DNA of 34,351 nucleotides, taken from NCBI GenBank assembly GCA_027484915.1, contig JAIXSA010000026.1, forward strand, positions 1-34,351, written 5' to 3'. Under the pieces are notes generated by a model, which worked only from the letters and a program-made list of their open reading frames with translations, searched no databases and had not been told where the DNA came from. Made by a program: the position numbers and the translations under genes. Shown piece by piece: positions 391-26,612 of the stretch; the stretch's first letter is position 1, and every line of letters begins with the position of its first letter. This DNA is from Paracoccaceae bacterium. Its GTDB lineage: Bacteria > Pseudomonadota > Alphaproteobacteria > Rhodobacterales > Rhodobacteraceae.

Positions 391-1248
391 TCACGCCGCC
401 GCGTCCACCGCAGCGGGCGCAAGACCAAGGATTGCGCGCGCCGTCCGCCAGTCCGCAACCGGGCGTTCGTACCGGACGCAGAGGTCCACGACGCGGCGCA
501 CCAGTGCGGCGTTGGAGGGGGCGAGCCTTTCGCGGTCGAGGCGGACGTTGTCTTCAAGGCCAGTGCGGGCGTGACCCCCGGAGGAGATGGCCCATTCGTT
601 CAGGACGATCTGGTTGAGGCCGATGCCCGCCGCACACCAGGGGGCGGCTTCGCCGAACAGGCGGTGCACGGTGCGGATGTAGTAGTCAAAGACCTCACGG
701 TCCGCAGGCATGGCATTCTTCACGCCCATCACGAATTGCACATAGGGCCGCGCGGCGATCTGGCCTGCCTGCCACATCTGGTGGGCCTTCAGGATATGAG
801 ACAGGTCGAAGGCCTCGATTTCCGGCATCACGCCGTAGGTCTTCATCTCGGCCGCCAGCCAGTCCACCAGATCCGGCGGGTTTTCATATACACGGTTCGG
901 GAAGTTGTTCGATCCGACCGAAAGCGAGGCCATGTCGGGCCGCAGGGGCAGCATCCCGCCCCGCGTCTTGCCGGCGCCAGAGCGGCCCCCGGTCGACAGC
1001 TGCACGATCATGCCGGGGCAGTGCTGGCGGATTCCCTCCATCAGTCGGGCGAAGCGGTCGGGGTCGGAGGTGGGCTTGCCCTCGTCGTCGCGGACATGGG
1101 CGTGGACGATTGCGGCGCCGGCCTCGAAGGCCTCATGCGTCGATTCCACCTGTTCTGCGATGGTGATCGGGACGGCGGGGTTGTTGTCCTTGGTCGGCAA
1201 TGAACCGGTGATGGCGACGCAGATGATGCAGGGGTTTCCGGCGGTCAC
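391..1248 (-). CDS. BKACE family (DUF849) beta-keto acid cleavage enzyme
   Basis: The 285-residue length is normal for the family. Known members are Zn-dependent cytosolic enzymes that condense a beta-keto acid with acetyl-CoA, releasing acetoacetate and a new acyl-CoA; the founder is 3-keto-5-aminohexanoate cleavage enzyme (Kce). Visible signatures are AITGS at residues 12-16, the metal pair His49-x-His51 in HAHVRD, STGGRSGAG, LRPDMASL, and Glu232 in GLEDN, the usual third metal ligand. The TIM-barrel fold is inferred from the family. It is the last gene after the alpha/beta hydrolase and SCP2-like genes on the same strand, divergent from a ring-cleavage dioxygenase. That context suggests a beta-keto acid from aromatic breakdown, such as beta-ketoadipate, as substrate. 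This is inference; the sequence alone does not fix the substrate. Confidence 0.9.
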   Translation of the reverse strand: MTAGNPCIICVAITGSLPTKDNNPAVPITIAEQVESTHEAFEAGAAIVHAHVRDDEGKPTSDPDRFARLMEGIRQHCPGMIVQLSTGGRSGAGKTRGGMLPLRPDMASLSVGSNNFPNRVYENPPDLVDWLAAEMKTYGVMPEIEAFDLSHILKAHQMWQAGQIAARPYVQFVMGVKNAMPADREVFDYYIRTVHRLFGEAAPWCAAGIGLNQIVLNEWAISSGGHARTGLEDNVRLDRERLAPSNAALVRRVVDLCVRYERPVADWRTARAILGLAPAAVDAAA

Positions 1249-1317
1249 TTGGCTTTTTCCGGCGTTGGAAAGGCGGGAAGGCGGGGGCAGTCCGTGCCCT
1301 TGCAGGTCTCGCAGTGG

Positions 1318-2169
1318 TCACACATCGGCCGGGACCTTCATGCGGGCCAGCGCGTCGGCGAAGAAGGGGCGGAAGGCGTTGGGGTGTTCGGACATCGGGA
1401 AATGGCCAAGTTCGTCCATCACCGTGCAGGTCGCACCGGGAATGGCGGCGGCGGTGCGGCGCGCGTCCTCGGGCGTGCAGGTCAGGTCATAGGCGCCGAC
1501 GAGGAGGTGGACGGGGGTGCGCGTGGCGTCGATTTGCGCCAGACGGCCGATCAGGCTGTCGTCGCGGGTGTAGAACGACAGGTCGCCGCGAAAGACGCCG
1601 GGGCCGGATTGCATGAACATCCACAGCGTGTTCCAGCGTTCGGCATCCGGCGCGTGGGGGCTGATGTTGGCCGAGACGAGCGCCGCCCCCATCTCGCCGC
1701 CGTGGGCATCAGGACGGTGGAACCAGTCGATGTCGTACCAGGCGGGCTGGAAGTCGGACGCCTCGATGGCGGTGAAGCCCGAGAAGGCGTCGCCGTGGAG
1801 CGCCGCGAGTTGCAACGCGATGCGGCCCCCCATCGAACAGCCCGCAAGGATTGGCCGGTCGAGACCGAGGGCGCGCGACACCGCGAGGACCGTCTCGATA
1901 TAGTCCTCGGTCGTCAGCAGGTATTCCTCGGTCTGAAAGCCCTCGGGTGGCAGCGACTTGCCATGCCACGGCATGTCGAAGGCATAGAAGCGGTAGTCCT
2001 TGGTCAGGCCCGCGTCGTTCAGGATGTGCCGCCACTGGCGGGTATCGGCCCCGGCGGTGTGCAGGCAGAGGACCGGAGTGCCAGTTCCCGCCATTTCCAC
2101 ATAGATCCGCTGGCGGCGGCCCTGGACGGTGACGGTCAGGTAGCGGCCGGTGATGGGCTCGAAGCTCAT
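1318..2169 (-). CDS. Alpha/beta hydrolase (possible lactone or ester hydrolase of the aromatic pathway)
   Basis: A protein of 283 residues. Alpha/beta-hydrolase landmarks are HTAG at 37-40 (oxyanion region), the nucleophile elbow GCSMGG with Ser112, a GAYDLT acid motif near residue 230, and a late GHFPMSEHP carrying the catalytic His. The ATG at 2169 is chosen because it overlaps the stop of the upstream gene in an ATGA arrangement; the longer reading at 2247 adds residues overlapping that gene. There is no signal peptide, so it should be cytosolic. Next to a ring-cleavage dioxygenase and near catB, a role like PcaD (3-oxoadipate enol-lactonase) is plausible. However, the region after the oxyanion motif (DMPWHGKSLPPEGF) differs from typical PcaD, so only the fold is certain. 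Confidence 0.88.
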   Translation of the reverse strand: MSFEPITGRYLTVTVQGRRQRIYVEMAGTGTPVLCLHTAGADTRQWRHILNDAGLTKDYRFYAFDMPWHGKSLPPEGFQTEEYLLTTEDYIETVLAVSRALGLDRPILAGCSMGGRIALQLAALHGDAFSGFTAIEASDFQPAWYDIDWFHRPDAHGGEMGAALVSANISPHAPDAERWNTLWMFMQSGPGVFRGDLSFYTRDDSLIGRLAQIDATRTPVHLLVGAYDLTCTPEDARRTAAAIPGATCTVMDELGHFPMSEHPNAFRPFFADALARMKVPADV

Positions 2170-2552
2170 GCCAGTTTCTCCATCTGGGCTACGGGGCGGG
2201 CGAGCGCCATGAAATCCTTGAAGAACCGCAGGTTCTTGACGAGGCACAGGATATCGCCGTCGATCCGCCCCCGCCCGATCTTCACCAGACCGAAGATGTC
2301 GTGAAAGCCTGGCTTCGGCTGGGGTTGCCAGAACTGCGCCAGGGCTTCGCCATCCGTCCGCAGGGCAAAGCGCCAGGGCGTCTTGCGGCTGGGGCCTTCG
2401 GCAATCTGTTCAAGCCGCCCGTCGCGGAAGGTCAGGTAGTATTCGGCTCCGCCCACCTCCAACAGCACGGTTTCGGAAAACAGACGACCGAGGCGAAGCA
2501 GATAGGGCGTCGCGTTCAGCCGCGACTGCATCCTGTCCAGTGTGGCGCGCAT
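2166..2552 (-). CDS. SCP2-like small protein of unknown role
   Basis: A protein of 128 residues. The pattern (short N-terminal helix, then LLEVGGAEYYLTFRDGRL, a PW-rich strand, a GRIDGDILCLVKN loop, and a helix ending in a hydrophobic face) resembles the sterol-carrier-protein-2 fold used for binding lipids or acyl-CoA. This is recognition of the pattern only; no catalytic motif is visible. It is first in a three-gene minus-strand unit, overlapping the hydrolase by 4 bp, so co-translation is likely. Because the cluster lacks a recognisable muconolactone isomerase (CatC, about 95 residues), one can ask whether this protein fills a missing step; it does not look like CatC. Its start is 256 bp from the divergent dioxygenase start. 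Confidence 0.75.
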   Translation of the reverse strand: MRATLDRMQSRLNATPYLLRLGRLFSETVLLEVGGAEYYLTFRDGRLEQIAEGPSRKTPWRFALRTDGEALAQFWQPQPKPGFHDIFGLVKIGRGRIDGDILCLVKNLRFFKDFMALARPVAQMEKLA

Positions 2553-2627
2553 GTGGGTTCCTCCTTGGCCCGACGGGGGCGTTGGACCCGAAAAAGCGCT
2601 GACCGGCCCTTTCCCGCAATGACGTGC

Positions 2628-2647
2628 AGGGTATCCTGCGATACCCT
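2628..2647. promoter_or_regulatory. Palindromic operator candidate (box 1), LysR type
   Basis: A perfect inverted repeat AGGGTATC-CTGC-GATACCCT lies in the divergent region between the SCP2-like gene and the dioxygenase. Its core GTATC-N4-GATAC contains the T-N11-A symmetry favoured by LysR-type regulators, and a CatR/BenM-like LysR gene follows the dioxygenase. A second copy of the core begins 50 bp further on. The assignment to this regulator is inference. Confidence 0.5.
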
Positions 2648-2680
2648 TTCCCGGACGGCAGGGCCTGGAACGGGGCGGGA

Positions 2681-2694
2681 GTATCGGGCCATAC
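2681..2694. promoter_or_regulatory. Palindromic operator candidate (box 2), LysR type
   Basis: GTATC-GGGC-CATAC repeats the core of box 1 with the same 4-bp spacer and one changed half-site base. The two centres are 50 bp apart, close to five helical turns. It lies just upstream of the best dioxygenase promoter candidate, where LysR regulators usually bind. Confidence 0.45.
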
Positions 2695-2705
2695 CCGGGC
2701 GGTCA

Positions 2706-2734
2706 TTGGCGGGGGGTCGGACGGCGTGGATAGT
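2706..2734 (+). promoter_or_regulatory. Candidate sigma-70 promoter of the dioxygenase
   Basis: TTGGCG (4/6 to the -35 consensus) and GATAGT (4/6 to the -10) are separated by 17 bp. They lie immediately downstream of the two palindromic boxes and about 75 bp before the dioxygenase ATG. Each element alone is weak. Confidence 0.3.
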
Positions 2735-2808
2735 CGGGTCATCGGCGGGAGGGAGTGGCCTTCAAGGCAGCCCGCACCAGATCAGCATCACGCCCGGAGG
2801 AGGGACAC

Positions 2809-3678
2809 ATGAGCAAGGTTACCATCGACAACGTCACCGATGTGGTCGTCGCAACGCTTGGCCAGAACGGCGCGATCACCGAGCGTCAGCGCGAGATCAT
2901 GACGGCGGCCATCCGTCACCTGCACGGCTTCTGCAAGGACGTGAACCTGACCCACGCCGAGTTCATCGACGCCTGCATGTTCCTGGCCCGCGCCGGGGCG
3001 GTCTGCAGCGACAAGCGGCAGGAATTCATCCTTCTGGGCGACATCCTGGGCGTCGAGGTCCTGTGCGACATGCTGACGAACCCGGTCACCGGATCGGAAT
3101 CGACCGTCCTTGGGCCGTTCTACCGCGAGAACCCGCCGGTCCTGCCGCATGGCGCCTCGACCGCGCAGAAGCATTTCGACGGTGAAGAGACCGTCTTCAT
3201 GGAAGGCTACATCAAGGACACCTCGGGCCGCCCGCTGGCTGGGGTGACGCTGGACATCTGGGAAGACGCGCCGAACGGGTTGTACGAAAACCACGACCAC
3301 GACCAGCCCGACTACAACTTGCGCGGCCGGTTCGAGACCGACGAGAACGGCTACTTCGCGCTGCGCGCGCTGCGCCCGGTGCCCTATCCGATCCCGGCCG
3401 ACGAGACCGCGGGAGAGCTTCTGCGCTATATGGGCCATCACCCGAACCGCCCCGGCCACCTGCACTTCATCGTGGCCAAGCACGGCTACCGGACGCTGGT
3501 CAGCCAGGTCTACGACAGCTCTTCGGCTTTCCTCGACAATGACTCGGTCTTCGCCGTGAAGGACAGCCTTGTTGGCAACTTCCAGAAGGGCAAGCCCGAG
3601 CATGGCACCGACCTTTACCTGCGCTTCGACTTCACGCTGAAGCCCGAAGCCGCTGTCTCGGCTCTGGCTGCCGAGTGA
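2809..3678 (+). CDS. Intradiol ring-cleavage dioxygenase (catechol or hydroxyquinol 1,2-dioxygenase)
   Basis: A protein of 289 residues; the ATG at 2809 is preceded by GGAGGAGGGA. It is a non-heme Fe(III) enzyme that opens a catecholic ring between the hydroxyls using O2. The helical N-terminal dimerisation domain spans about 1-100. In the beta-sandwich catalytic domain the four expected iron ligands are visible: Tyr159 (NGLYEN), Tyr193 (VPYPIP), and His217 and His219 (RPGHLHF). Their spacing closely follows catechol dioxygenases. The segments TVLGPFYREN and VKDSLVGNF also resemble hydroxyquinol dioxygenases, so the substrate is not settled. Because benABCD and catB are nearby and no other ring-cleavage gene is in the window, catechol to cis,cis-muconate (a CatA role) is the best inference. 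A terminator follows. Confidence 0.9.
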   Translation: MSKVTIDNVTDVVVATLGQNGAITERQREIMTAAIRHLHGFCKDVNLTHAEFIDACMFLARAGAVCSDKRQEFILLGDILGVEVLCDMLTNPVTGSESTVLGPFYRENPPVLPHGASTAQKHFDGEETVFMEGYIKDTSGRPLAGVTLDIWEDAPNGLYENHDHDQPDYNLRGRFETDENGYFALRALRPVPYPIPADETAGELLRYMGHHPNRPGHLHFIVAKHGYRTLVSQVYDSSSAFLDNDSVFAVKDSLVGNFQKGKPEHGTDLYLRFDFTLKPEAAVSALAAE

Positions 3679-3785: not shown

Positions 3786-4673
3786 GTGAACATCAAGCAG
3801 CTGGAATACTTCATCGCCCTGGCCGAGGAATTGCACTTCGGCCGCGCGGCAGAGCGTCTGGGCATGGCGCAGCCGCCCTTAAGCCGCCAGATCAAGCAGA
3901 TCGAGGACGACCTTGGCGCGCTTCTGTTCAACCGGGGCCGCAACGCGATCACCCTGACGCAGGCCGGGGAGCGGCTGTATGCGCGCGGCACGGCGATGCT
4001 GGCCGAGTTCAACGACATCAAGCTTGAGGTGCGGCGGATCGGGCAGGGGGCCGAGGGGCGGCTGCGGGTGGGCTTCGTGGGCTCGGCGACCTACGGCATC
4101 CTGCCCACGATCCTGAAAAGCTTCCGGGCGTCCTATCCGGACGTGAACCTCTCGCTGATCCCGATGAACAACGCCCAGCTGCACCGCAGCCTGATCCGGC
4201 GCGAGATCGACATCGCCTTCGCCCGCCCCGCGCTGGACGATGCCGAGATCACCACACGTAAGCTGGGGGACGAGCCGCTGGTCCTTGCCGTACCCGACAC
4301 GCTGGACCTGCCCAAGGGACCCGTGGACCTGCGCCAGCTGGCGGGAGAGGCCTTCGTGCTGTATCCCGAATTTCCCCGCCCCTCCTTTGCCGACTTCGTG
4401 CTGAACTCCTGCGCCGATCTGGGGATCGAGGTGAAGCGGCGGGTGTTCACGATGGACTTCCAGACCGCGATCGCCCTGGTCTCGGTCGGCGAAGGCGTGG
4501 CGGTTGTCCCGCAATCGGTGGGGTCGGTGCAGCGGACGGGCGTGCGCTTCCACGATATCGTCAACCCGCTGGCCAAGACCGGGGTGTCGGTAAACCACCG
4601 CCTGGACGAACAGGGCGTGCATGTCCGCAACTTCGTGGCCATCGCCCAGAAGGTCGCGCGGAAGACGTTCTGA
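3786..4673 (+). CDS. LysR-family transcriptional regulator, CatR/BenM-like
   Basis: A protein of 295 residues, typical for LysR. The GTG at 3786 follows a strong GGGGGGAGA site. The N-terminal winged helix-turn-helix is clear (LEYFIALAEELHFGRAAERL, then PPLSRQIKQIEDDLG, about residues 6-45). The rest is the two-lobed effector domain. The HFGRAAERL and PPLSRQI wording matches regulators of catechol and muconate genes (CatR, CatM, BenM, CbnR), which respond to muconate-type inducers. The gene lies just after the dioxygenase and probably acts on the divergent promoter region with two GTATC-N4-palindromes. Its end is only 7 bp from the convergent livF stop, with no terminator between. Confidence 0.93.
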   Translation: MNIKQLEYFIALAEELHFGRAAERLGMAQPPLSRQIKQIEDDLGALLFNRGRNAITLTQAGERLYARGTAMLAEFNDIKLEVRRIGQGAEGRLRVGFVGSATYGILPTILKSFRASYPDVNLSLIPMNNAQLHRSLIRREIDIAFARPALDDAEITTRKLGDEPLVLAVPDTLDLPKGPVDLRQLAGEAFVLYPEFPRPSFADFVLNSCADLGIEVKRRVFTMDFQTAIALVSVGEGVAVVPQSVGSVQRTGVRFHDIVNPLAKTGVSVNHRLDEQGVHVRNFVAIAQKVARKTF

Positions 4674-4680
4674 CGGCGGG

Positions 4681-5382
4681 TCAGACCCCCAGCCAGCGGT
4701 GCTGCGCCTCGGTATCCGCCCGGATCGCCTCGGCACTGCCCTGCCAGACGATGCTGCCCTTGGACACGACGACCACGTCATCGGCCAATGAGGTAGCGAA
4801 GCCGAAGTTCTGTTCGACCAGGATCATCGACAGGCCTTCCCGCTTCAGGTCGGCCAGCTTGTCATGGATCAGCTTGACGATGATCGGGGCCAGCCCCTCG
4901 GTCGGCTCGTCCAGGATCAGGAGGCGCGGGTTCATCAGAAGGCCGCGCGCGATGGCCAGCATCTGCGCCTCGCCGCCCGACAGCTGGTCGCCACCGTTGT
5001 CCAAACGCTCTCCCAGCCGGGGGAAAAGCCCGATGATCCGCTCCACCGTCCATCCGCCCTGCGGGCAGGGGAAGCGGCGGGCGGCGAGGTCGAGGTTCTC
5101 GCGCACCGAAAGCGAGCGGAAAATGTCCCGGGTTTCCGGGACATAGGCGATGCCAAGCCGGGCGATGTCGAAGGGCGACTTGCCGCTGATCTTCTGCCCG
5201 TCGAAGCTGACGCTGCCGCCCTTCGTCGGCAGTAGGCCCATGATCGTCTTCAGCGTTGTCGACTTGCCCGCACCGTTGCGGCCGAGGATCGCCAGCACCC
5301 GGCCCGGCTCGGCCCTAAGGCTGAGGCCATGCAGGACCTGGGTTTCCCCGTAGCCGGACGAAAGGTCTGTCAGATCAAGCAT
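4681..5382 (-). CDS. livF: ABC transporter ATP-binding protein, LivF type
   Basis: A protein of 233 residues, the normal LivF length. Walker A GRNGAGKS is at about 34-41, the signature LSGGEAQM follows, and Walker B is LLILDEPTEGLAP, with the EGLAP wording typical of LivF. It is one of two nucleotide-binding subunits of a branched-chain-amino-acid-type (HAAT) importer at the inner membrane. It is the last gene of the ben-liv operon and overlaps livG by 8 bp. Because the transporter follows benABCD with no promoter-sized gap, its substrate is more likely an aromatic acid such as benzoate than leucine. That specificity is inferred from position, not from the ATPase itself. Confidence 0.93.
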   Translation of the reverse strand: MLDLTDLSSGYGETQVLHGLSLRAEPGRVLAILGRNGAGKSTTLKTIMGLLPTKGGSVSFDGQKISGKSPFDIARLGIAYVPETRDIFRSLSVRENLDLAARRFPCPQGGWTVERIIGLFPRLGERLDNGGDQLSGGEAQMLAIARGLLMNPRLLILDEPTEGLAPIIVKLIHDKLADLKREGLSMILVEQNFGFATSLADDVVVVSKGSIVWQGSAEAIRADTEAQHRWLGV

Positions 5383-6118
5383 CTTCCCAAGCCCCCAGAT
5401 AGATGTCCTTCAAAAGCTGGCTGCCGCGCGCCGCTTCGGGCAGACCGTCGAAGACGACCTCGCCGTAGTTCAGGACGGTGATCGTGTCGGCCACGTCGAA
5501 GGCCAGGTCCATGTCATGTTCGATGATCAGGATGGTCAGATCGCGTGGCAGGCCCTTCAGCAGCCGGTGGAAGCCCTTCGACATCTCCGGCCCGACGCCG
5601 CTGGTCGGTTCGTCCATCAGGATCACCTTGGGCCGGGTGGCCAGTGCGATCCCGACCTCCAGCTGGCGGCGGATGCCGTAGCTGACCGCGTCGACCCGGG
5701 CCCCAAGGTACGGGGCAAGATCGACCTGGGCGGCGACTTCGCGGACCGTCTCGCGCACTTCGGCACTTTGCAGCGGGTCGGACCAAAGGCCCTGGCCCTT
5801 GCCAAGCGCGACCGCGGCGGCAAGGCCCAGGTTCTCGCCAATTGTCAGCCCGTCGAAGAGCGTGTTCTTCTGGTAGCTGCGGCTGAGGCCCCGGCGGGCG
5901 CGGTCGGCGACGCGAAGGCCGGTGACGTCCGCACCGTCGAGGTGGATCGAGCCGCGGTCGGGGCGCAGCTCTCCGACCAGCTGGTTGAAAAGCGTGGTCT
6001 TGCCCGCGCCATTCGGACCCAGGATCACCCGGCGTTCGCCCTTTTCCAGCTTCAGGCTGACATCGCGCGTCACCTGGATCGGGCCGAAGGATTTCGAAAG
6101 GTTGCGCGTCTCAAGCAT
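5375..6118 (-). CDS. livG: ABC transporter ATP-binding protein, LivG type
   Basis: A protein of 247 residues. Walker A GPNGAGKT is at 34-41. The signature region reads VSYGIRRQLEV, the degenerate form usual in LivG proteins, and Walker B is VILMDEPTSGVGPE. The LivG C-terminal extension (NYGEVVFDG...VLKDIYLG-like ending) is present. It pairs with LivF to power the importer. It overlaps livF downstream by 8 bp and livM upstream by 8 bp, indicating translational coupling. The same HAAT transporter layout recurs beside aromatic-acid catabolic genes in other alphaproteobacteria, so benzoate or a related acid is a reasonable substrate guess. Confidence 0.93.
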   Translation of the reverse strand: MLETRNLSKSFGPIQVTRDVSLKLEKGERRVILGPNGAGKTTLFNQLVGELRPDRGSIHLDGADVTGLRVADRARRGLSRSYQKNTLFDGLTIGENLGLAAAVALGKGQGLWSDPLQSAEVRETVREVAAQVDLAPYLGARVDAVSYGIRRQLEVGIALATRPKVILMDEPTSGVGPEMSKGFHRLLKGLPRDLTILIIEHDMDLAFDVADTITVLNYGEVVFDGLPEAARGSQLLKDIYLGAWEDA

Positions 6119-7091
6119 CGGCCTTGGCCTCCTTGACCACGGGTTTCGGGCTACGGGCCTCCCAGCGCGCTTCGATGAAGCCGAAGACGCCTTTGGCGCG
6201 GCTCATGACGACGGCGATCAGGATCAGGCCGACAATGGCGTGCCAGTAAGGGGTGATGGCCGAAATCTCGTGTTTCAGGACCACGAACAGGATCGCGCCG
6301 AGGAGCGGTCCGACCAGCGTGCCAAGGCCGCCGAGGATCACGACCACCAGCGCCTCGCCCGAGACTGTCCAGGACAGAAGGCCGGGCGAGACGTACTGCG
6401 TGTGCTGGGCGGCAAGGCAGCCCGCCAGCCCAGCCAGCGCGCCCGAGATCGCGAAGGCTGTGGCCTTGGCGCGCCAGACGGTCAGGCCAAGGGCGCGCAG
6501 CCGCTTTTCGTTGTGGTGAATGCCGACGAGGCTGCGCCCGAGGCCAGAGCGCAGGGTGGCCGAGGCGATGAGGTAAGAGAGCGCAACGAGAAGGATGGTG
6601 TAGACCGCGAAGGCCCGACTGTCGGTAAAGTCGATGCCGATGGCCGTCAGGTCGGGTCGCGGCGCGCCGGAAAGGCCGTCATCCCCGCCAAAAAGCGGCG
6701 ACTGGAAGACGAAGCTGTAGGCCATCTGCCCGAAGGCCAGGGTCGCCATGATGAAGTAGATGCCGGTCGAGCGCGCGCAGACCGCCCCGATGGCGAAGGC
6801 AAGGACGCTGGAAAGCGCGACGGAAAGCAGCATGGCGGGCAGCGCAGGCAGTCCCGCCTCGGTCGCGGCGACGGTGAAGGCATAGGCCCCCACCCCCAGA
6901 AGCGCGCCGTGGCAGAGCGAGACCATCCCGCCAAAGCCCGCGACAAGGTCCAGCGCGATGACGAGGATGGCGAGGATCGCGATCTCGGCCAGGATCTCCA
7001 GTCCGAAGAACCCGGCAATGTAAGCGTAGGAGAGCGACCCGGCGGCCAGAAGCGCCAGCGTGGTCAGACGAAGCGGCGTGTGCGTGAACAT
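6111..7091 (-). CDS. livM: ABC transporter permease, LivM type
   Basis: A protein of 326 residues with many hydrophobic segments across its length (for example LTTLALLAAGSLSYAYIAGF near the N-terminus). The LivM-type motif GFGGMVSLCHGALLGVGAY appears near residue 60 and a GGLGTLVGPLLGA loop near residue 255. The ATG at 7091 is chosen because it lies 4 bp after the livH stop and begins MFTHTPLRL; the longer frame to 7136 would run into livH. It forms the inner-membrane channel with LivH. A cytosolic C-terminal tail rich in Lys and Ala (KPVVKEAKADA) follows the last membrane segment. Confidence 0.92.
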   Translation of the reverse strand: MFTHTPLRLTTLALLAAGSLSYAYIAGFFGLEILAEIAILAILVIALDLVAGFGGMVSLCHGALLGVGAYAFTVAATEAGLPALPAMLLSVALSSVLAFAIGAVCARSTGIYFIMATLAFGQMAYSFVFQSPLFGGDDGLSGAPRPDLTAIGIDFTDSRAFAVYTILLVALSYLIASATLRSGLGRSLVGIHHNEKRLRALGLTVWRAKATAFAISGALAGLAGCLAAQHTQYVSPGLLSWTVSGEALVVVILGGLGTLVGPLLGAILFVVLKHEISAITPYWHAIVGLILIAVVMSRAKGVFGFIEARWEARSPKPVVKEAKADA

Positions 7092-7095
7092 CGGG

Positions 7096-7965
7096 TCACC
7101 CTTTCGCGGGCAGAAGGCCCTCGGGACGGGTGACAAGCACCGCCGCGAGAAGCGCGTAGATGAGGACGGAACTCAGCGTCGGCAGCAGGACCGCGCCGAA
7201 GGTCTGGACGAAACCGAAGATCAGCGCCCCGGCGACCGCGCCTTTCAGGCTGCCAAGCCCGCCGATCACGATGACGATCAGGGTCGGGATCAGGATCTGC
7301 AGGCCCATGTCGGGTGTGACCGACAGCACCGGCGCGGCAACGGCCCCGGCAAGCCCCGCAAGGGCGCAGCCGACGACGAAGACCAGGAAGAACATGCGTT
7401 CAACGTTGATGCCAAGGCAGGCGGCCATCTGGTCGTTGTCGACCCCGGCACGGATCATCGCGCCAATCTGGGTGCGGGTCAGGATCAGGGTCAGGACGGC
7501 CAGCACGGCAAGGCCAAGGGCGATGATGAACAGCCGGTAGACCGGATACTCGACGCCCAGAAGTGCGATCTGGCCGTCCAGCAGGGCAGGCACCGCGATC
7601 CCGATGGGCAGGTCGCCCCAGATCAGCCGGGTGGCGTCGACGGCGACGAAGATGAGACCGAAGGTCACCAGCACCTGGGCCATCGGTCCGGCGCGCCGCT
7701 GAGACCGGATCAGGGTGAAGTACAGCACGGCGCCGAGGGCCGCGACGGCCAGCGGTGCCAGGACGAACCCGCCCCAGTAGCCCAGTGTCTCCGCCAGCGT
7801 GGCCGCGACATAGGCGCCGAAGGCGTAAAGCGAGCCGTGGGCGAGGTTCACGAAATGCATCAGCCCGAAGATCACCGTCAGGCCGACAGAAAGCAGGAAC
7901 AGCAGCATGGAGAGTTGCAGAGCGTTCAAGGTCTGCAGCACCCAGAAGCCAAGGTCTGTGGTCAT
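7096..7965 (-). CDS. livH: ABC transporter permease, LivH type
   Basis: A protein of 289 residues, almost entirely membrane helices. Typical LivH wording includes LMHFVNLAHGSLYAFGAY near residues 35-52 and IVIGGLGSLKGAVAG near the C-terminus, the loop that contacts the ATPases. The ATG has an AAGGGTG site upstream. It is the first transporter permease in the operon, separated from the binding-protein gene by a 51-bp gap containing a strong hairpin. It pairs with LivM; the substrate is inferred to be an aromatic acid from its ben neighbours. Confidence 0.93.
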   Translation of the reverse strand: MTTDLGFWVLQTLNALQLSMLLFLLSVGLTVIFGLMHFVNLAHGSLYAFGAYVAATLAETLGYWGGFVLAPLAVAALGAVLYFTLIRSQRRAGPMAQVLVTFGLIFVAVDATRLIWGDLPIGIAVPALLDGQIALLGVEYPVYRLFIIALGLAVLAVLTLILTRTQIGAMIRAGVDNDQMAACLGINVERMFFLVFVVGCALAGLAGAVAAPVLSVTPDMGLQILIPTLIVIVIGGLGSLKGAVAGALIFGFVQTFGAVLLPTLSSVLIYALLAAVLVTRPEGLLPAKG

Positions 7966-7987
7966 GGTTGCACCCTTCGGGGTTGGC

Positions 7988-8008
7988 GGGGGCCGACCTG
8001 CGGCCCCC
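7988..8008 (-). other. Intercistronic hairpin between binding protein and livH
   Basis: A perfect 8-bp stem GGGGGCCG/CGGCCCCC with a 5-base loop sits right after the binding-protein stop. No U-tract follows on the transcribed strand, so it is more likely an RNA-stability or attenuation element than a full terminator. Such elements often let the binding protein be made in excess over the permeases. Confidence 0.6.
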
Positions 8009-8016
8009 GGGAAACG

Positions 8017-9198
8017 TCAGTTGGTGGCGACGGGCATCTCGCAGCCGTTGGCGGGGTCCGCCTCGGCCGGAAGGGTGGCGAGCACTTTCTGGGTCAGCCC
8101 CTCGGGACCGGCGACCGTCTCGTAGACGTGGATCGGCTGGACGATGTTGTTCGTCGCCGGGTCGATCCGCAGCTCTCCCCGCGGGCCGGTGAAGGCCACC
8201 TTGGGCAGCGCCGCCGCCAGGGTTTCGCGGTCGGTTGCCCCGGCCTTCACTGCCTCGACCAGCGCGCGGGCGCTGTCATAGCCCTGAACCGCGTATTCCG
8301 ACGGGATGCGGCCGGTCTTGGCCTTGAAGGCTTCGACAAAGGCGGCGTTCTCGGGGTTGTCGAGCGTCGGCACGTAGTGGAGCGCGGTGATGACGCCTTC
8401 CGCCGCCGGGCCTTCCGCCTCTACATAAAGCGCCGAGGTCAGGAAGCCCGAACCGTATAGCGGCATCTCGGCCTGCAGGCCGAAGCTGTCGTATTGCTTG
8501 ACGAAGGAGATCGCCTCGCCGCCCGCGAAGAAGACATAGACCGCATCGGCACCGCTGGCCTTGGCATTGGCAAGGTAGGGGCCAAAGTCCTGTGTCTTCT
8601 GGAAGGCGGGCCATTCTTGGCCCACGACCTCGCCGCCCGCGGCGGTGAAGGCGGTGGTGAAGGCGTCGATCATCTGGCGGCCGGCGGCATAGTCCGGGGC
8701 GATGGTGAAGACCTTCTTCACGCCCTGATCGACCATCCATTTGCCCATTGGGCGGTTCACCTGGCTGTTCGAGAAAGAGACGCGGGTGATGAACGGGCTG
8801 CACTGTTCGCCCGTCGCCTCGTCGTTGCCCGCATTCGCCACGATGAGCGGCACGCCTGCGCCATCCACGGTGTCGCGGATCGCGCCCAGCACGCCCGAGG
8901 AGACCACACCGACCATCACGTCGACTTCGTCCTGCAGGATCAGCTTCTTGGTCTTGGCAAGGCCCACCGGCGGCTTCACTTCGTCATCCTCGCGGACGAT
9001 CTCGAAAGTGACGCCGCTGTCCGCGCCATAGGTTTCAAGGCCCAGCGCAAAGGCGTCGTCGATGTCCTGCCCCAGCGCGGCATAGACGCCGGAATAGGGC
9101 AGAAGCATCCCCACCTTGATATCCTCGGCGTAAGCTGCCGACAGCATGGCCGTGCTGGTGACGAGCCCGGCAAGGGCCGCCTTGAAAGTCGATTTCAT
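8017..9198 (-). CDS. Periplasmic binding protein of a HAAT-type (LivK-like) ABC importer
   Basis: A protein of 393 residues. It begins with a classical signal peptide (MKSTFKAALAGLVTSTAML, Ala-rich end at AAYA before ED), so the mature protein is periplasmic. The IKVGMLLPYSGVYAALGQDI start of the mature chain is typical of the Peripla_BP_6 fold, and two lobes continue to a Cys-containing tail (ANGCEMPV). It lies between benD and livH in the same operon. Relatives beside aromatic pathways bind benzoate, hydroxybenzoates or related acids; benzoate is inferred here from operon context. A GGCGCC-N7-GGCGCC hairpin at 9216-9234 lies just upstream of its ribosome-binding region. Confidence 0.92.
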   Translation of the reverse strand: MKSTFKAALAGLVTSTAMLSAAYAEDIKVGMLLPYSGVYAALGQDIDDAFALGLETYGADSGVTFEIVREDDEVKPPVGLAKTKKLILQDEVDVMVGVVSSGVLGAIRDTVDGAGVPLIVANAGNDEATGEQCSPFITRVSFSNSQVNRPMGKWMVDQGVKKVFTIAPDYAAGRQMIDAFTTAFTAAGGEVVGQEWPAFQKTQDFGPYLANAKASGADAVYVFFAGGEAISFVKQYDSFGLQAEMPLYGSGFLTSALYVEAEGPAAEGVITALHYVPTLDNPENAAFVEAFKAKTGRIPSEYAVQGYDSARALVEAVKAGATDRETLAAALPKVAFTGPRGELRIDPATNNIVQPIHVYETVAGPEGLTQKVLATLPAEADPANGCEMPVATN

Positions 9199-9249: not shown

Positions 9250-10023
9250 TCAGCCCAGGTCGCCCCCACCCACCGGGATCGTGACCCCGGTCAGATAAGA
9301 GGCATCGTCGGACGCCAGGAACAGGATCACCCCCGCCTGTTCATCCAAGGTTCCGTAGCGGCGCATGAGGCTGGACTGGACCGTCTGGTCGACAATCTCT
9401 TGGTACCAGGCCTTCTCTTGCGACGTCTGTTCGTTCGGGTTGCGCGGCACGGCGCGGGGCGGCGCCTCGGTCCCGCCGGGGGCGGTGGCGACGACGCGGA
9501 TGCCGCGCTCGGCCACTTCCCAGGCAAGGCTTGCGGTGATGGCATTCACCCCGCCCTTGGCCGCGGCGTAAGGCACGCGGTTCAGGCTGCGGGTGGCGAT
9601 GGAGCTGACATTGACGATCACGCCCTTGCCCGCCGCCAGCATGTGCGGCAACGCGGCGTGGCAGGAGTAAAGCGTCGGGAACAGCGACCGGCGCACTTCG
9701 GCGTCGATCTGGTCGGCCTCGTAATGCTCGAAGGGCTTGGCCCAGATCGTGCCGCCGACGTTGTGGATGGAGACGTCGATGCGACCGAATTCCTTGATGA
9801 CGCCGTCCATTGCAGCGACGGCCCCGGCGTGGGTTTCGAGGTCGGCGCTTAGATACACTGCCTTGCCACCCGCCGCAGTGACTGCATCCGCCACCTCGGC
9901 TCCGATGGGGGAGCGGTCGATCACCGCGACATGGGCACCTTCTAGCGCGGCCCGTTCGGCCACGCGGCGACCGATGCCCTGCGCGGCTCCGGTGATCGCA
10001 AAGACCCTGCCCTTGAACCGCAT
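9250..10023 (-). CDS. benD: Benzoate cis-diol dehydrogenase (short-chain dehydrogenase)
   Basis: A protein of 257 residues. It oxidises and decarboxylates the cis-diol made by BenABC to catechol, with NAD+. The nucleotide-binding motif TGAAQGIG is at 11-18, the catalytic Ser is in NVSSIA (140-141), and Tyr152 and Lys156 form YxxxK in PYAAAKGG. The HNVGGTIWAKPFEHY stretch is characteristic of BenD-type enzymes. The ATG at 10023 is preferred because it overlaps the benC stop as TGATG; a GTG one codon upstream is also possible. It follows benC directly and is the last catabolic gene before the transporter genes. Confidence 0.93.
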   Translation of the reverse strand: MRFKGRVFAITGAAQGIGRRVAERAALEGAHVAVIDRSPIGAEVADAVTAAGGKAVYLSADLETHAGAVAAMDGVIKEFGRIDVSIHNVGGTIWAKPFEHYEADQIDAEVRRSLFPTLYSCHAALPHMLAAGKGVIVNVSSIATRSLNRVPYAAAKGGVNAITASLAWEVAERGIRVVATAPGGTEAPPRAVPRNPNEQTSQEKAWYQEIVDQTVQSSLMRRYGTLDEQAGVILFLASDDASYLTGVTIPVGGGDLG

Positions 10024-11036
10024 CACGCTGCCGCCTTGGTCTCAGAGGGGTTGAACTTCTCGAAGAAGAACGAGGCGGGCGTCACGCCAAGCGCGGCCAT
10101 GTGGGTCCGCACCGCCTCGACCATCGGCGGTGGGCCGCAGAGGTAGACATCGGCCGCCCCGGCCCAAAGGTCAGCGGCCGTCAGGTGGTCGGTGACGAAG
10201 CCCTTTTTCGGGTGGCTGCTTGCCGCATCGGCGACGATGGTCAGGATTTCCAGCGACGGGATCAGCCCGGTAAGGCTGGTCAGCCGGTCAAGCTCCACCA
10301 GGTCCGCGTCGCGGGTGACGGCGTAGTAAAGGCGGATCGGCTGGTCCGTGCCCGTGGTGGCGATCTGCTCCAGCATGGACAGGAAGGGTGCCAGGCCCGT
10401 GCCGCCGGCGAGGAAGACCTGCGGTCGCGTGACCGGGCGCAGGTAGAAGGCGCCCATCGGGCCCATCAGGGAAATGTCATCGCCAGCCTTGGCGCGGGCG
10501 AGGTAGCCCGACATCAGCCCGCCCGGGATGTTGCGGATCAGGAAGGAGGCTTCCGTCGCCTCCGGGTGGCTGGAGAAAGAATAGGCCCGAGTCGCCGCGG
10601 TGCCAGGTACCTGCACGTTGACGTACTGGCCGGGCAGGAAGGGCATGGCGGCGGGCAACTTGACGCGCAGGCGGAACGAGGTTTCCGACAGCGCCTCCAC
10701 CCCCGCGACCGTGGCCTGGACCGTCTGCGCGCCGGTCTTGCAGGCGAGCGACGAGGCCGGGATGGCCACGACGCAATCGGACTTCGGCATCATCTGGCAG
10801 GTCAGGACCATGCCTGCCGCCGCCTCTTCCTCGGTCATCGCGTCTTCGAGGTAGAAGCCCAGCTCATAAGCGCCCCGCTCGGCCATGCACTTGCAGGTGC
10901 CGCAGACGCCGTCGCGGCAGTCCATCGGCACGTTGATCTTCTGCCGGAAAGCCGCGTCCGAGACCTTTTCGTCGGCCTCGCAGTCGATGATGCGGGTGAC
11001 ACCATCCTCGAAGTTCAGGGCGATCTTGTAGGTCAT
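10023..11036 (-). CDS. benC: Benzoate 1,2-dioxygenase electron-transfer component (ferredoxin reductase)
   Basis: A protein of 337 residues. The N-terminal plant-type ferredoxin has the 2Fe-2S cysteines Cys40, Cys45, Cys48 (DCRDGVCGTCKC) and Cys80. The FAD-binding domain shows RAYSFSS near residue 150, and the NAD(P) domain shows GGTGLAPFLSML. It passes electrons from NADH through FAD and the iron-sulfur centre to the BenAB oxygenase. A long GC hairpin lies in the 75-bp gap between benB and this gene. Its stop overlaps the benD start. Confidence 0.95.
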   Translation of the reverse strand: MTYKIALNFEDGVTRIIDCEADEKVSDAAFRQKINVPMDCRDGVCGTCKCMAERGAYELGFYLEDAMTEEEAAAGMVLTCQMMPKSDCVVAIPASSLACKTGAQTVQATVAGVEALSETSFRLRVKLPAAMPFLPGQYVNVQVPGTAATRAYSFSSHPEATEASFLIRNIPGGLMSGYLARAKAGDDISLMGPMGAFYLRPVTRPQVFLAGGTGLAPFLSMLEQIATTGTDQPIRLYYAVTRDADLVELDRLTSLTGLIPSLEILTIVADAASSHPKKGFVTDHLTAADLWAGAADVYLCGPPPMVEAVRTHMAALGVTPASFFFEKFNPSETKAAA

Positions 11037-11048
11037 GGCTCCTCCTCT

Positions 11049-11084
11049 CTCCGGCGGGCCTCCTCCTCAGGGGCCGCGCCGGAG
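11049..11084 (-). other. Intercistronic hairpin between benB and benC
   Basis: Arms CTCCGGCGGGCC (11049-11060) and GGCCGCGCCGGAG (11072-11084) pair as a 12-bp stem with a single bulged base. The hairpin ends a few bases before the GGAGGAG ribosome-binding site of benC. There is no U-tract. It may tune the ratio of oxygenase (BenAB) to reductase (BenC). Confidence 0.6.
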
Positions 11085-11111
11085 TGCCGTCTGGGGAACG
11101 GCTTTGCGGTG

Positions 11112-11621
11112 TCAGATGTGGTAGACGTCGATCACGTGATGGATGCGGTCGTTCTTCAGGATCACATTCTTCGAGGTGATCAAGGGCGCGCCGGAGGCCA
11201 CGTCCACCGTATAGAACGACGTTCCCCAGTAGGTGTCGGTCGTCCCGTAGCGGTAGTTGTGCGTCATCCAGTTGAAGCGCAGATGCGTCTTCGTGCCCTC
11301 ACGCCCCAGCACCTCGACATTGGTGATGTTGTGCCCCGTGCGCGGTTCGGGCAGCGAGGTGGCGCTGGACCGATCCGTCTTGATCCGGAACACCCGATCC
11401 TCGATCCCGCCCCGGTTGGGGTAGTAGATCAGCGACATTTCGTTCATCGGGTCTTCGGTCAGGGTGTCGAAGTCGTCCCAGGCTGGCATCCAGAACGGGC
11501 AGTCGGGGTGGTAGAACTGGATCCAGTCGTCGAAGCGGCGGTCGTCCAGGGCACGCGCCTCGGCATAAAGGAAAGCGCAAAGCGCGTCGTAGGAAAGCTG
11601 GGTATCGGTCACGGCGTTCAT
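11112..11621 (-). CDS. benB: Benzoate 1,2-dioxygenase small (beta) subunit
   Basis: A protein of 169 residues, as usual for ring-hydroxylating dioxygenase beta subunits, which have a cone-shaped NTF2-like fold and mostly a structural role. Recognisable stretches are LYAEARALDDRRFDDWIQFY near the start and WMPAWDD, PMNEMSLIYY and RTGHNITNVEV further on. The ATG at 11621 lies 5 bp after the benA stop; the longer open frame to 11696 only adds residues overlapping benA. It forms a hexamer with BenA in relatives. Confidence 0.94.
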   Translation of the reverse strand: MNAVTDTQLSYDALCAFLYAEARALDDRRFDDWIQFYHPDCPFWMPAWDDFDTLTEDPMNEMSLIYYPNRGGIEDRVFRIKTDRSSATSLPEPRTGHNITNVEVLGREGTKTHLRFNWMTHNYRYGTTDTYWGTSFYTVDVASGAPLITSKNVILKNDRIHHVIDVYHI

Positions 11622-11626
11622 CTGGC

Positions 11627-13006
11627 TCACTCCGCTGCGATCTGGGTTGCGGTCTGGCGCTCGGCCTCGACAGCCGCGGCCATGCGTTCGGTCCACTGGC
11701 TGTGCTGGATGACGAAGAGCCCCTCATCCTCGGTCCGGGCACCCGACAGGATCGGCTTCAACCCGATCCGTTGTGCTTCCTCGTCTGCGCCCTTGATCCA
11801 CTGGGTGGCACCCCGGGTCAGGTCGTTCCACTTCGCCGTCGGCGCTGCGGCATAGCCCATCTGGGTCGCGCGGAATTCCTCCAGGTCGTCCGGCGTCGCC
11901 ATGCCCGAGGCGTTGAAGAAATCCTCGTACTGGCGGATGCGGCGGGTGCGGGCCTCCTGGCTCTCGCCCCTCGGCGCGATGCAGTAGATTGTGACCTCGG
12001 TCTGATCGACCGAGATCGGACGGAACACGCGCAGCTGGCTGGAGAACTGGTCCATCAGGAACAGGTTCGGATAGAGGCAAAGGTTGCGCAGGTAGCCGAT
12101 CATCCAGTCGGCCTTGGCCTCGCCGTATTTCGCCACCAGCTCATCCTGCCGCGGGGCCAGCGGGCGGTTCGACGGGTCGGCCCATTTGGTCCACAGAACC
12201 AGGTGGCCGTTGTCGAAGCTGTAGAACCCGCCTTTCTGCTTGTTCCACTTCGAGGCGTCGACGGACTTCACCTCGTCCTTGCCCTCATCCGCGCGGTGGC
12301 TGGTGGTGGCGACATAGTTCCAGTGCACGGCCGAGACGTGGTAGCCGTCCGCGCCGTTTTCGGCCTGCAGCTTCCAGTTGCCCTGGTAGGTGTAGGTCGA
12401 GGACCCGCGCAGCACCTCCAGCCCCTCGTCGGACTGGTCGGCCACCATGTCGATCATCACCTTGGCCTCGCCCAGGTAATCCGACAGCGGCTGCACGTCG
12501 GGGTTCAAGGAACCGAAGAGGAAGCCGCGATAGGATTCAAACCGCGCCACGCGGCGCAGGTCGTGGCTGCCGTTCTTGTTGAACTGCTCGGGGTAGCCCG
12601 CGCCTTCGGGGTCCTTCACCTTCAGCAGCTTGCCGGTGTTGTTGAAGGTCCAGCCGTGGAACGGACAGGTGAAGGTCGCCTTGTTCTGCCGCTTGTGCCG
12701 GCACAGCATCGCGCCCCGGTGCGAGCAGGCGTTGATCAGCGCGTGCAGGGTGCCAGTCTTGTCGCGGGTGATCATGATCGGCTGGCGGCCGATATGGGTA
12801 GTGAAGGTGTCGTTGACGTTGGGGATCTGGGATTCGTGGGCCAGGTAGATCCAGTTGCCCTCCCAGATGTGCTTCATCTCCAGCTCGAAGAGCTCCGGGT
12901 CGGTGAACATGTCGCGGCGGGCGCGGAAAATGCCCTCGGCGGGCTTGTCCTGCACGATGCCGTCCAGGCGGCGGGTGATCTCGTCGAGACCTGCGTCTGT
13001 AAACAT
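11627..13006 (-). CDS. benA: Benzoate 1,2-dioxygenase large (alpha) subunit
   Basis: A protein of 459 residues, normal for the family. It adds both atoms of O2 to benzoate, giving a cis-dihydrodiol. The Rieske centre ligands are Cys94 and His96 (CSHRGA) and Cys114 and His117 (CPFHGW). The mononuclear iron site shows His223 and His228 within [15 protein letters not shown], with the bridging Asp220. The ATG at 13006 is preceded by GGAGGGAGAG; the longer reading frame lacks such a site. It is separated from catB by 95 bp holding two hairpins. Relatives accept benzoate and sometimes toluate or anthranilate; benzoate is most likely given the BenD-type partner. Confidence 0.95.
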
Positions 13007-13053
13007 GGCTCTCTCCCTCCATGATGCCCCTCGCGGGACAAAGCTCCCTCGGT

Positions 13054-13076
13054 CCCGGAAAGCGATGCTTTCCGGG
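13054..13076 (-). other. Perfect hairpin in the benA 5' region
   Basis: CCCGGAAAGC-GAT-GCTTTCCGGG is a perfect 10-bp stem with a 3-base loop. No U-tract follows on the minus strand. It lies between catB and benA together with the smaller hairpin at 13086-13098, and could protect or attenuate the downstream ben message. Confidence 0.65.
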
Positions 13077-13085
13077 TCATCTCCT

Positions 13086-13098
13086 CCCCCAGTGGGGG
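13086..13098 (-). other. Small GC hairpin just after the catB stop
   Basis: CCCCC-AGT-GGGGG begins 4 bases beyond the catB stop codon. It has no U-tract and is followed within 10 bases by the longer hairpin at 13054-13076. Confidence 0.4.
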
Positions 13099-13101
13099 TA
13101 T

Positions 13102-20044: not shown

Positions 20045-20062
20045 TCTTTCTCTCCTGTTGGG

Positions 20063-26503: not shown

Positions 26504-26612
26504 GTCGACCTCTATCGGTTGGCCGTCCTGCCAAGGGACGGAATGACACGATCTTCGCAGGTGTTCACGACGTTGAGAAGTCAGGTTCCCATGACAAATT
26601 CGGTCATTTGCA

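What the first reader, a model, noticed from the sequence alone, without database searches (positions are those of the whole stretch)
391..3678. A BKACE enzyme in a ring-cleavage divergon: possible alternative end to the beta-ketoadipate pathway
The locus pairs a ring-cleavage dioxygenase with an alpha/beta hydrolase, an SCP2-like protein and a BKACE (DUF849) enzyme. benABCD and catB are close by. No recognisable catC, pcaIJ or pcaF is in the window. BKACE chemistry could take beta-ketoadipate plus acetyl-CoA to acetoacetate plus succinyl-CoA in one step, replacing the CoA-transferase and thiolase. The SCP2-like protein or hydrolase might cover the missing isomerase/lactonase steps. The gene identities are seen; the pathway is inference.
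Basis: partly seen in the sequence, partly recalled or inferred. Interest (0 to 1): 0.62.

Follow-up and report, generated by a model that had tools for sequence, protein, structure and literature searches.

The report
Alternative catechol pathway with SCP2-fold enzyme
A benzoate-degrading gene cluster that lacks the usual muconolactone isomerase carries instead a small protein with a lipid-carrier fold, paired with a hydrolase, which together probably do the two missing steps and would explain a known gap in a marine bacterium that grows on benzoate.

Summary
The four genes are real: BKACE, alpha/beta hydrolase (ABH), a small SCP2-fold protein and, divergently, an intradiol dioxygenase, near LysR, transporter, benABCD and catB genes. 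The BKACE idea is sound but known: the protein passes NCBI's cut-off for 3-oxoadipate:acetyl-CoA acetyltransferase, and BKACE in place of pcaIJ/pcaF is published for Methylobacterium. BKACE is in the locus in 16 of 19 SCP2-positive Rhodobacterales genomes. The constant is the SCP2-ABH pair. Of 292 genomes, 33 have catB: 19 of these carry the SCP2-like gene and 0 of 19 have catC; of the other 14, 10 have catC. The pair overlaps by four bases in 79 of 80 named loci; five loci are compact dioxygenase-catB-SCP2-ABH operons. Some distant pairs sit beside succinate-semialdehyde dehydrogenase or AttM lactonase genes, which fits similar chemistry on a simpler lactone. Sulfitobacter D7, published as growing on benzoate with every catechol-branch gene "except" CatC, carries the pair. 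Best reading: SCP2-like protein = muconolactone isomerase, ABH = enol-lactonase, BKACE = last step. The pattern rests on few independent events; no enzyme was assayed.

The parts
391..1248 (-). BKACE, predicted 3-oxoadipate:acetyl-CoA acetyltransferase (acetoacetate + succinyl-CoA as products)
   Evidence: PF05853; NF053568 484.8 bits vs cut-off 350; nearest solved chains 3fa5, 3chv, 3no5
1318..2169 (-). alpha/beta hydrolase (ABH), predicted 3-oxoadipate enol-lactonase; its ATG overlaps the end of the SCP2-like gene by 4 bases
   Evidence: PF00561; 68.4 bits to PcaD model TIGR02427, cut-off 255.85; S112/D228/H256 invariant; overlap in 79 of 80 loci
2166..2552 (-). SCP2-fold protein, 128 aa, predicted muconolactone delta-isomerase
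   Evidence: no Pfam/NCBIfam family; model pLDDT 90.3; SCP2 fold; conserved residues
2631..2644 (.). palindrome GTAT-N6-ATAC, possible operator in the divergent promoter
   Evidence: one of two occurrences in the window; pattern in 68 of 79 upstream regions, about 0.18 hits expected in all by mononucleotide shuffling
2681..2694 (.). second GTAT-N6-ATAC palindrome
2809..3678 (+). intradiol ring-cleavage dioxygenase, predicted catechol 1,2-dioxygenase of a hydroxyquinol-dioxygenase-like clade (ORF open from 2755)
   Evidence: PF00775, PF04444; PDB neighbours; ATG at 2809 after GGAGGAGGG
3786..4673 (+). LysR-type regulator
   Evidence: PF00126/PF03466; a relative in 77 of 80 loci
4681..9198 (-). 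Liv-type ABC transporter (2 ATPases, 2 permeases, binding protein), possible aromatic-acid uptake
   Evidence: lies between LysR and ben genes in many relatives too
9250..13105 (-). benDCBA (benzoate dioxygenase and diol dehydrogenase); benB by synteny only
   Evidence: SDR, reductase and Rieske families; same order as annotated benABCD of Sulfitobacter D7 p5SUD7
13102..14475 (-). catB, muconate cycloisomerase (homology starts near residue 74 of the ORF)
   Evidence: TIGR02534 493.5 bits, cut-off 334.95; nearest solved chain 3ct2

Best explanation
[quoted passage not shown] BenABCD makes catechol; the dioxygenase opens it to cis,cis-muconate; CatB closes that to muconolactone. The SCP2-fold protein then shifts the ring double bond (delta-2 to delta-3 butenolide, the CatC reaction) and the hydrolase coupled to it opens the enol-lactone to 3-oxoadipate (the CatD/PcaD reaction). 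BKACE cleaves 3-oxoadipate with acetyl-CoA to succinyl-CoA and acetoacetate, and a CoA-transferase plus thiolase finish acetoacetate. Shown by computation: gene identities, co-occurrence, coupling, absence of catC from the searched genomes, fold. Inferred: every substrate assignment and the split of the two steps between the SCP2-like protein and the hydrolase.
For: (1) Complementarity: of 292 Rhodobacterales genomes 33 have catB over the cut-off; 19 of them carry the SCP2-like gene and 0 of 19 have PF02426 catC; 10 of the other 14 have it. Of 42 further SCP2-positive genomes 38 have no PF02426 match; 1 has a strong one, which lies in a separate module with its own ben genes, catA-like gene and catB. 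(2) Anatomy: SCP2-ABH adjacent in 80 of 80, dioxygenase in 76 of 80, catC in 0 of 80 loci; 4-base overlap in 79 of 80; five compact operons dioxygenase-catB-SCP2-ABH, where the pair stands where catC and catD would be expected. (3) Slot exchange: in G088 and G255 a related dioxygenase (69% identical) and catB (40% and 39%) are followed by a GST-family gene; both genomes have PcaD over the cut-off, in G255 as the end of the next ORF, in G088 about 11 kb away; their catBs nest beside SCP2-associated ones. (4) Four SCP2-positive genomes (G000, G175, G108, G019) have no PcaD over the cut-off, so ABH is the candidate lactonase there. (5) Of 8 distant SCP2-ABH pairs read, 3 stand beside SSADH and 2 beside AttM: isomerising and opening an unsubstituted butenolide would give succinate semialdehyde (chemistry, inferred). 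(6) R/K56 and K57 occur in 6 and 7 of 7 catB-linked proteins aligned and in 0 of 11 distant ones; K106 in 7 of 7 and 0 of 11 (R in 2), as expected if they bind muconolactone's carboxylate. (7) Sulfitobacter D7 grows on benzoate as sole carbon source, with all catechol-branch genes found 'except Muconolactone isomerase CatC' (PMC9873259, passages); its plasmid p5SUD7 carries catB, ben, dioxygenase, SCP2-like and ABH genes. (8) BKACE.
Against: No enzyme was tested. On the catB tree the four isomerase labels need only 5 changes among 34 sequences, so the 0-of-19 vs 10-of-14 contrast (Fisher p 1e-5; by genus 0 of 16 vs 3 of 5, p 0.0075) rests on few independent events; 8 of the 10 catC genomes are one genus, and the tool warns that long rows (G228, G246) are placed unsurely. 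SCP2-fold proteins are known as carriers, not isomerases (recalled). One SCP2-positive genome (G307) also has a strong catC; lower PF02426 hits (51.9-63.7 bits, still over Pfam's 26.7 cut-off) occur in four, G307 included, with no catB or dioxygenase label beside them, but they could be isomerases. Fifteen of 19 SCP2-positive genomes have PcaD as well, so ABH is not needed there for that step. The dioxygenase is closer to hydroxyquinol than to catechol dioxygenases. Position 91 does not separate the groups cleanly (K 7 of 7; K or R in 4 of 11 distant). Three of the 8 distant pairs read have neither SSADH nor AttM next to them. The window's genome is a 95%-complete draft and its contig ends beside BKACE.
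Confidence: 0.62

Rival explanations
1. The hydrolase alone handles muconolactone (direct lactone opening followed by tautomerisation, or a promiscuous enol-lactonase), and the SCP2-fold protein is an accessory: substrate carrier, chaperone or scaffold for it.
For: SCP2 folds are binding/carrier folds (fold; function recalled). In all 80 named loci the two genes are together, as expected for a complex.
Against: The SCP2-like protein has an invariant polar set (H84, D85, K91, K106, N107; K57 nearly so), which is not what a lipid tunnel would need. In the GST operons PcaD is present and one extra protein still sits in the slot, which suggests that a separate isomerase is needed.
Confidence: 0.2
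2. The pair acts on something else in the benzoate regulon, and the isomerase is an unknown gene elsewhere in these genomes.
For: Absence of PF02426 does not show which gene replaces it, and no association over all gene families was run. Distant relatives seem to do other work.
Against: The pair is the unassigned conserved part of the locus and occurs in five operons with just dioxygenase, catB and LysR as labelled company. 19 of 19 SCP2-positive genomes have catB.
Confidence: 0.12
3. The divergon is a hydroxyquinol route: dioxygenase to maleylacetate, reduced to 3-oxoadipate and cleaved by BKACE, independent of ben/catB.
For: Closest PDB sequences of the dioxygenase are (chloro)hydroxyquinol 1,2-dioxygenases.
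Against: No maleylacetate reductase was recognised among the window genes scanned (the rest of the genome was not searched for one). catB in 19 of 19 SCP2-positive genomes and compact dioxygenase-catB operons. The genome has another intradiol dioxygenase on C116 beside a flavin aromatic hydroxylase and a second BKACE, a better hydroxyquinol candidate. 0 of 19 SCP2-positive genomes have a canonical CatA over the cut-off, G019 coming nearest with 340.3 of 392 bits.
Confidence: 0.06

Closest known systems
[quoted passage not shown]
   Same: Same upper steps (benABCD, intradiol cleavage, catB) and same predicted intermediates; LysR gene
   Different: In the window's draft genome no catC, and CatA, PcaD and PcaF only below cut-off; SCP2-ABH pair in the catC-catD place; BKACE in the locus instead of PcaIJ/PcaF
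Methylobacterium pca clusters with kce (DUF849/BKACE) in place of pcaIJ and pcaF (PMC8963497, PMC12379598; passages only)
   Same: BKACE as predicted last step of a beta-ketoadipate pathway
   Different: Protocatechuate branch (pcaHGBL + kce); no SCP2-like protein mentioned in the passages seen
SCP2 superfamily (UbiJ-SCP2 6h6o, Thermus 1wfr, 2cx7, alkylsulfatase domain 2yhe)
   Same: Fold
   Different: No family match by sequence; conserved basic and polar residues; predicted enzyme, not carrier
CatC muconolactone delta-isomerase (PF02426)
   Same: Predicted reaction and operon place
   Different: No sequence match to PF02426; predicted SCP2 fold; both genes in one genome only in G307, in separate modules, the low-scoring hits apart

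Membership tests
BKACE, 3-oxoadipate:acetyl-CoA acetyltransferase (NF053568) | Whole-protein score above the curated equivalog cut-off (350 bits) | tested here: met
   484.8 bits
BKACE, 3-oxoadipate:acetyl-CoA acetyltransferase (NF053568) | Active-site subgroup of the published BKACE groups | not tested
   groups read about in passages only
BKACE, 3-oxoadipate:acetyl-CoA acetyltransferase (NF053568) | Activity on 3-oxoadipate and acetyl-CoA | not testable with these tools
   needs purified enzyme
SCP2 superfamily | SCP2 fold | tested here: met
   AlphaFold pLDDT 90.3; best PDB matches are SCP2 proteins
SCP2 superfamily | Sequence match to a catalogued SCP2 family | tested here: not met
   no Pfam/NCBIfam hit; at E<=10 only one sub-threshold DUF
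CatC (PF02426) | Match to PF02426 | tested here: not met
   none in the protein or the genome
CatC (PF02426) | Muconolactone isomerisation | not testable with these tools
   inferred from context only
PcaD/CatD (TIGR02427) | Score above cut-off 255.85 | tested here: not met
   ABH 68.4 bits
PcaD/CatD (TIGR02427) | alpha/beta hydrolase family with Ser-Asp-His residues | tested here: met
   PF00561; S112/D228/H256 invariant in 10 sequences; triad geometry not modelled
CatA catechol 1,2-dioxygenase (TIGR02439) | Score above cut-off 392 | tested here: not met
   129.5 bits; over the cut-off in 8 of 33 catB genomes, all 8 with catC
Muconate cycloisomerase CatB (TIGR02534) | Score above cut-off 334.95 | tested here: met
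   493.5 bits
Standard catechol branch | catC, pcaD, pcaI and pcaF present in the genome | tested here: not met
   catC none; PcaD, PcaF below cut-off; best PcaI/ScoA-model hit 197.5 bits at a contig end, in the ScoA range; pcaJ not searched; genome 95% complete

The most novel reading that the evidence does not exclude
A small SCP2-fold protein is a true butenolide double-bond isomerase. With its coupled hydrolase it forms a two-protein module for gamma-lactones found in Alphaproteobacteria, Rhodococcus, Bacillales and a haloarchaeon, and the catB-linked branch replaced CatC-CatD in 19 of the 33 catB-positive Rhodobacterales sampled here. Its isomerase slot has been exchanged with CatC and with a GST-family protein.
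Probability: 0.45. Interest if true: 0.76.

Novelty: new variant of a known kind. Interest (0 to 1): 0.6.

Why it matters
It offers a concrete, easily tested candidate for a documented gap: Sulfitobacter D7 grows on benzoate, which algae release, without a recognised muconolactone isomerase (PMC9873259, passages). If right, it gives a function to a small protein that the plasmid records call hypothetical or leave unannotated, a new activity to the SCP2 fold, a better way to predict benzoate and catechol use from genomes (catC-based rules would miss this version), and a new part for engineering pathways through muconolactone and 3-oxoadipate.

Tried and rejected
Rejected: the idea that BKACE is the key novelty (known in Methylobacterium; missing from 3 of 19 loci). 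Rejected: a BenM/CatM-type site ATAC-N7-GTAT (consensus recalled), one hit with 1 mismatch at 14329 against 1.22 expected; the conserved motif is GTAT-N6-ATAC. Rejected as chance: the single weak DUF7141 match of the SCP2-like protein.

Checked and weaker than hoped: the Fisher p values overstate independence. The first catB tree is void: six rows had been read on the wrong strand; rebuilt. The first ORF picking by length chose antisense ORFs in GC-rich DNA; redone for 14 of the 20 stretches with codon-position GC. Position 91 is basic in 4 of 11 distant SCP2-like proteins, so it is no clean mark of the catB-linked group.

Papers: searches for SCP2 + muconate (0 papers), muconolactone + Roseobacter (4), missing or replaced muconolactone isomerase (13; 19, 15 listed), butenolide isomerase + SSADH (12, 10 listed) and GST + muconolactone (9) listed no title that claims this replacement. 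Apart from papers named in the report and PMC5527002 (passages: a Sphingomonas with ordinary catC), only titles and abstract starts were seen; subscription journals are not held and supplements could not be read. PMC12442348 (abstract and passages) is a counter-example for the last step: the Roseobacter-clade Roseovarius nubinhibens degrades 4-hydroxybenzoate with PcaIJ, by mutant evidence.

Exceptions among the 14 SCP2-negative catB genomes without catC: G088 and G255 (GST operon), G261 (ben-catB kept, but no SCP2-like gene, no BKACE match and no TIGR02439 match: pathway looks decayed), G034 (divergent catB, other context). They are counted as catC-negative in all tallies. G224 has SCP2-ABH but no dioxygenase in its locus and only a 54-bit TIGR02439 match in its genome.


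Full report
What is there. The window is contig C14 of a 3.84 Mb draft genome (173 contigs, 95.24% complete). The finding's four genes exist as described. The BKACE gene (391-1248, minus) passes the NCBI equivalog cut-off for 3-oxoadipate:acetyl-CoA acetyltransferase (484.8 against 350 bits). The hydrolase is best read from ATG 2169, which overlaps the end of the small gene by four bases. The small protein has no sequence family, but its model has the SCP2 fold. The dioxygenase lies divergently, with its start best placed at 2809. LysR, a Liv-type transporter, benDCBA and catB follow; benB is placed by synteny only.

Conservation. I searched 292 genomes drawn from the order with the SCP2-like protein: 22 matched, 19 of them strongly (E <= 1.7e-41) and 3 weakly. 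In 20 stretches of 15-20 kb (18 strong relatives and 2 of the 3 weak ones), SCP2 and ABH were adjacent in 20 of 20. A collection scan found 143 relatives and returned the best 80, named: mostly Rhodobacterales by name, with Mesorhizobium, Aquamicrobium, Pseudaminobacter, Sinorhizobium, Roseibium and Stappia. In these 80 loci ABH was present in 80, LysR in 77, the dioxygenase in 76, BKACE in 60, benD in 50 and catB in 25, while catC was seen in none; many loci are cut by contig ends or by the 10 kb flank. The four-base overlap of SCP2 and ABH is present in 79 of 80, and five loci are compact operons dioxygenase-catB-SCP2-ABH. GTAT-N6-ATAC palindromes lie upstream of the SCP2-like gene in 68 of 79 regions (one too short was dropped) against about 0.18 hits expected in all by mononucleotide shuffling; the window's only two occurrences, at 2631 and 2681, are both in the divergent promoter.

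Who lacks catC. catB (TIGR02534 over its cut-off) is in 33 of the 292 genomes. All 19 strong SCP2 genomes are among them. PF02426 was searched in 42 genomes including those 19: 0 of the 19 had it, while G006 (136.6 bits) and G010 (61.8 bits) gave hits, which shows that the search works. Of the 14 catB genomes without the SCP2-like gene, 10 had catC. Fisher's p is 1.1e-5 by genome and 0.0075 by genus, but the genomes are related: on a catB tree the labels SCP2, catC, GST and none need 5 changes among 34 sequences (one search is void), and the tool warns that some long rows are placed unsurely. The SCP2 label lies in two deeply separated catB clades. In a second set of 42 SCP2-positive genomes, whose completeness is not told, 38 had no PF02426, one (G307) had a strong catC (138.6 bits) and a lower second hit, and three had only lower hits (51.9-60.6 bits, over Pfam's 26.7-bit cut-off). 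G307's strong catC lies between a catA-like gene (25% identical to the window's dioxygenase) and its own catB beside ben genes, on another contig than its SCP2 locus. Near the lower hits no catB or dioxygenase was labelled, but they were not followed further.

The exceptions are informative. G088 and G255 have neither gene, but carry a dioxygenase (69% identical to the window's) and catB (40% and 39%), followed directly by a glutathione S-transferase family gene. Both have PcaD over the cut-off: in G255 as the C-terminal part of the next ORF of 580 aa, in G088 about 11 kb from catB. Their catBs form a clade nested beside SCP2-associated ones. So where a normal lactonase is at hand, a single extra protein still fills the isomerase place. 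G261, nested among SCP2 genomes on the tree, keeps ben-catB but has no SCP2-like gene, BKACE match or TIGR02439 match: probably decay. G034 has a divergent catB in another setting.

The other steps. Canonical CatA is over its cut-off in 8 of the 33 catB genomes, all with catC, and in 0 of 19 SCP2 genomes (G019 has a 340.3-bit hit below the 392-bit cut-off). PcaD is over its cut-off in 29 of 33; the four without are all SCP2-positive, the window's genome among them (listing limited to E <= 1e-30). So ABH is the candidate lactonase in those four, and is additional in the other 15. BKACE of the 3-oxoadipate type is over its cut-off in 18 of 19 SCP2 genomes (28 of all 33). It is in the SCP2 locus in 16 of 19 (window included). 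Strong hits to the PcaI/ScoA model (over 300 bits, my own line; the model's cut-off is 128.5 and it covers both kinds) occur in 5 of 19: in 3 of the 3 whose locus lacks BKACE and in 2 of the 16 whose locus has it. PcaF is over its cut-off in 14 of 19, not in the window's genome (540.4 against 597); PcaJ was not searched. A lower-scoring (ScoA-type, by my reading) transferase gene lies directly downstream of BKACE in 27 of 45 loci with room for it, of 57 loci with BKACE at 60% identity or more, as expected if acetoacetate is the product.

The wider family. A plasmid search with the SCP2-like protein found 40 records, 22 of them at 60-80% identity; the gene is called hypothetical protein or has no annotation. 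Of the 17 records at 35% identity or less, 8 were read. Three pairs stand beside NAD-dependent succinate-semialdehyde dehydrogenase (Agrobacterium larrymoorei, Rhodococcus sp. PD04, Peribacillus), two beside AttM (Martelella sp. AD-3, Hoeflea), two beside a gluconolactonase-like gene and near tcuAB (Palleronia, Martelella mediterranea) and one, in the archaeon Natrinema, in a setting with no clear link. Isomerising and hydrolysing an unsubstituted butenolide gives succinate semialdehyde, so the SSADH neighbours fit one shared chemistry; this is inference from chemistry, not a result. P79 and G99 are shared by all 18 aligned members and H84 by 15. R/K56 is in 6 of 7 and K57 in 7 of 7 catB-linked members, and neither site is basic in any of 11 distant ones; K106 is in 7 of 7, with R in 2 of 11; K91 is in 7 of 7, but K or R also in 4 of 11.

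Link to physiology. G194 is Sulfitobacter sp. D7: its contig C6 has the length of plasmid p5SUD7 and the gene lies at the same position. [quoted passage not shown] The plasmid carries catB, benABCD, the transporter, LysR, dioxygenase, SCP2-like and ABH genes in the window's order, without BKACE next to them; BKACE, PcaI, PcaF and PcaD hits lie elsewhere in the genome, also on the same plasmid. PF02426 is absent from the genome.

Known and new. BKACE acting on beta-ketoadipate, and BKACE replacing pcaIJ/pcaF in a pca cluster, are in print as proposals: PMC8963497 (passages), PMC12379598 (passages), where a cluster with pcaHGBL and kce let M. extorquens grow on protocatechuate (no test of kce alone in the passages seen), and PMC4922564 (passages). 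Against a general rule, Roseovarius nubinhibens uses PcaIJ for 4-hydroxybenzoate (PMC12442348, abstract and passages). What I did not find in print (searches; open-licence library only, some listings capped) is a replacement of CatC by an SCP2-fold protein. I therefore file the locus as a new variant of a known pathway, with a candidate new enzyme family inside it. Confidence that the pair together covers the two missing steps is higher than confidence in which protein does which.

Noticed in passing
L203:8034-10948 (G088) and L204:8165-10929 (G255): Operon dioxygenase-catB-GST: a glutathione S-transferase family gene takes the place of the SCP2-ABH pair or catC in two genomes that have PcaD; possible third muconolactone isomerase.
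   Followed up: partly
L193:9394-14764 (contig C116 of the window's genome): Second BKACE (492.1 bits to NF053568) beside another intradiol dioxygenase, a 583-aa flavin aromatic hydroxylase and Liv-type permeases; looks like a resorcinol/hydroxyquinol-type route ending in BKACE.
   Followed up: partly
window 15700-23533: Opp/Dpp-type transporter with acetamidase/formamidase, an AmiR-like ANTAR regulator (21843-22847) and an AmiC-like binding protein (22442-23533): an amide-sensing and uptake set next to the ben/cat cluster.
   Followed up: no
window 31096-33936: DNA polymerase III alpha-type gene of 946 aa (DnaE2-like by recall); five neighbouring ORFs scanned at 25688-31054 gave no Pfam match.
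   Followed up: no
L173 (Phaeobacter inhibens P88 plasmid pP88_c): Two dioxygenase-SCP2-ABH sets in one 20 kb stretch with a BKACE gene but no ben or catB annotated in that stretch; may handle a substituted catechol.
   Followed up: no
L175 (Natrinema zhouii plasmid): Distant SCP2-ABH pair in a haloarchaeon (25% identity) beside TRAP transporter and oxidoreductase genes.
   Followed up: no
G293, G307, G308, G316 (L198-L201): Low-scoring PF02426 relatives (51.9-63.7 bits, over the Pfam cut-off) away from any labelled catB; possibly a different isomerase family of unknown role.
   Followed up: no
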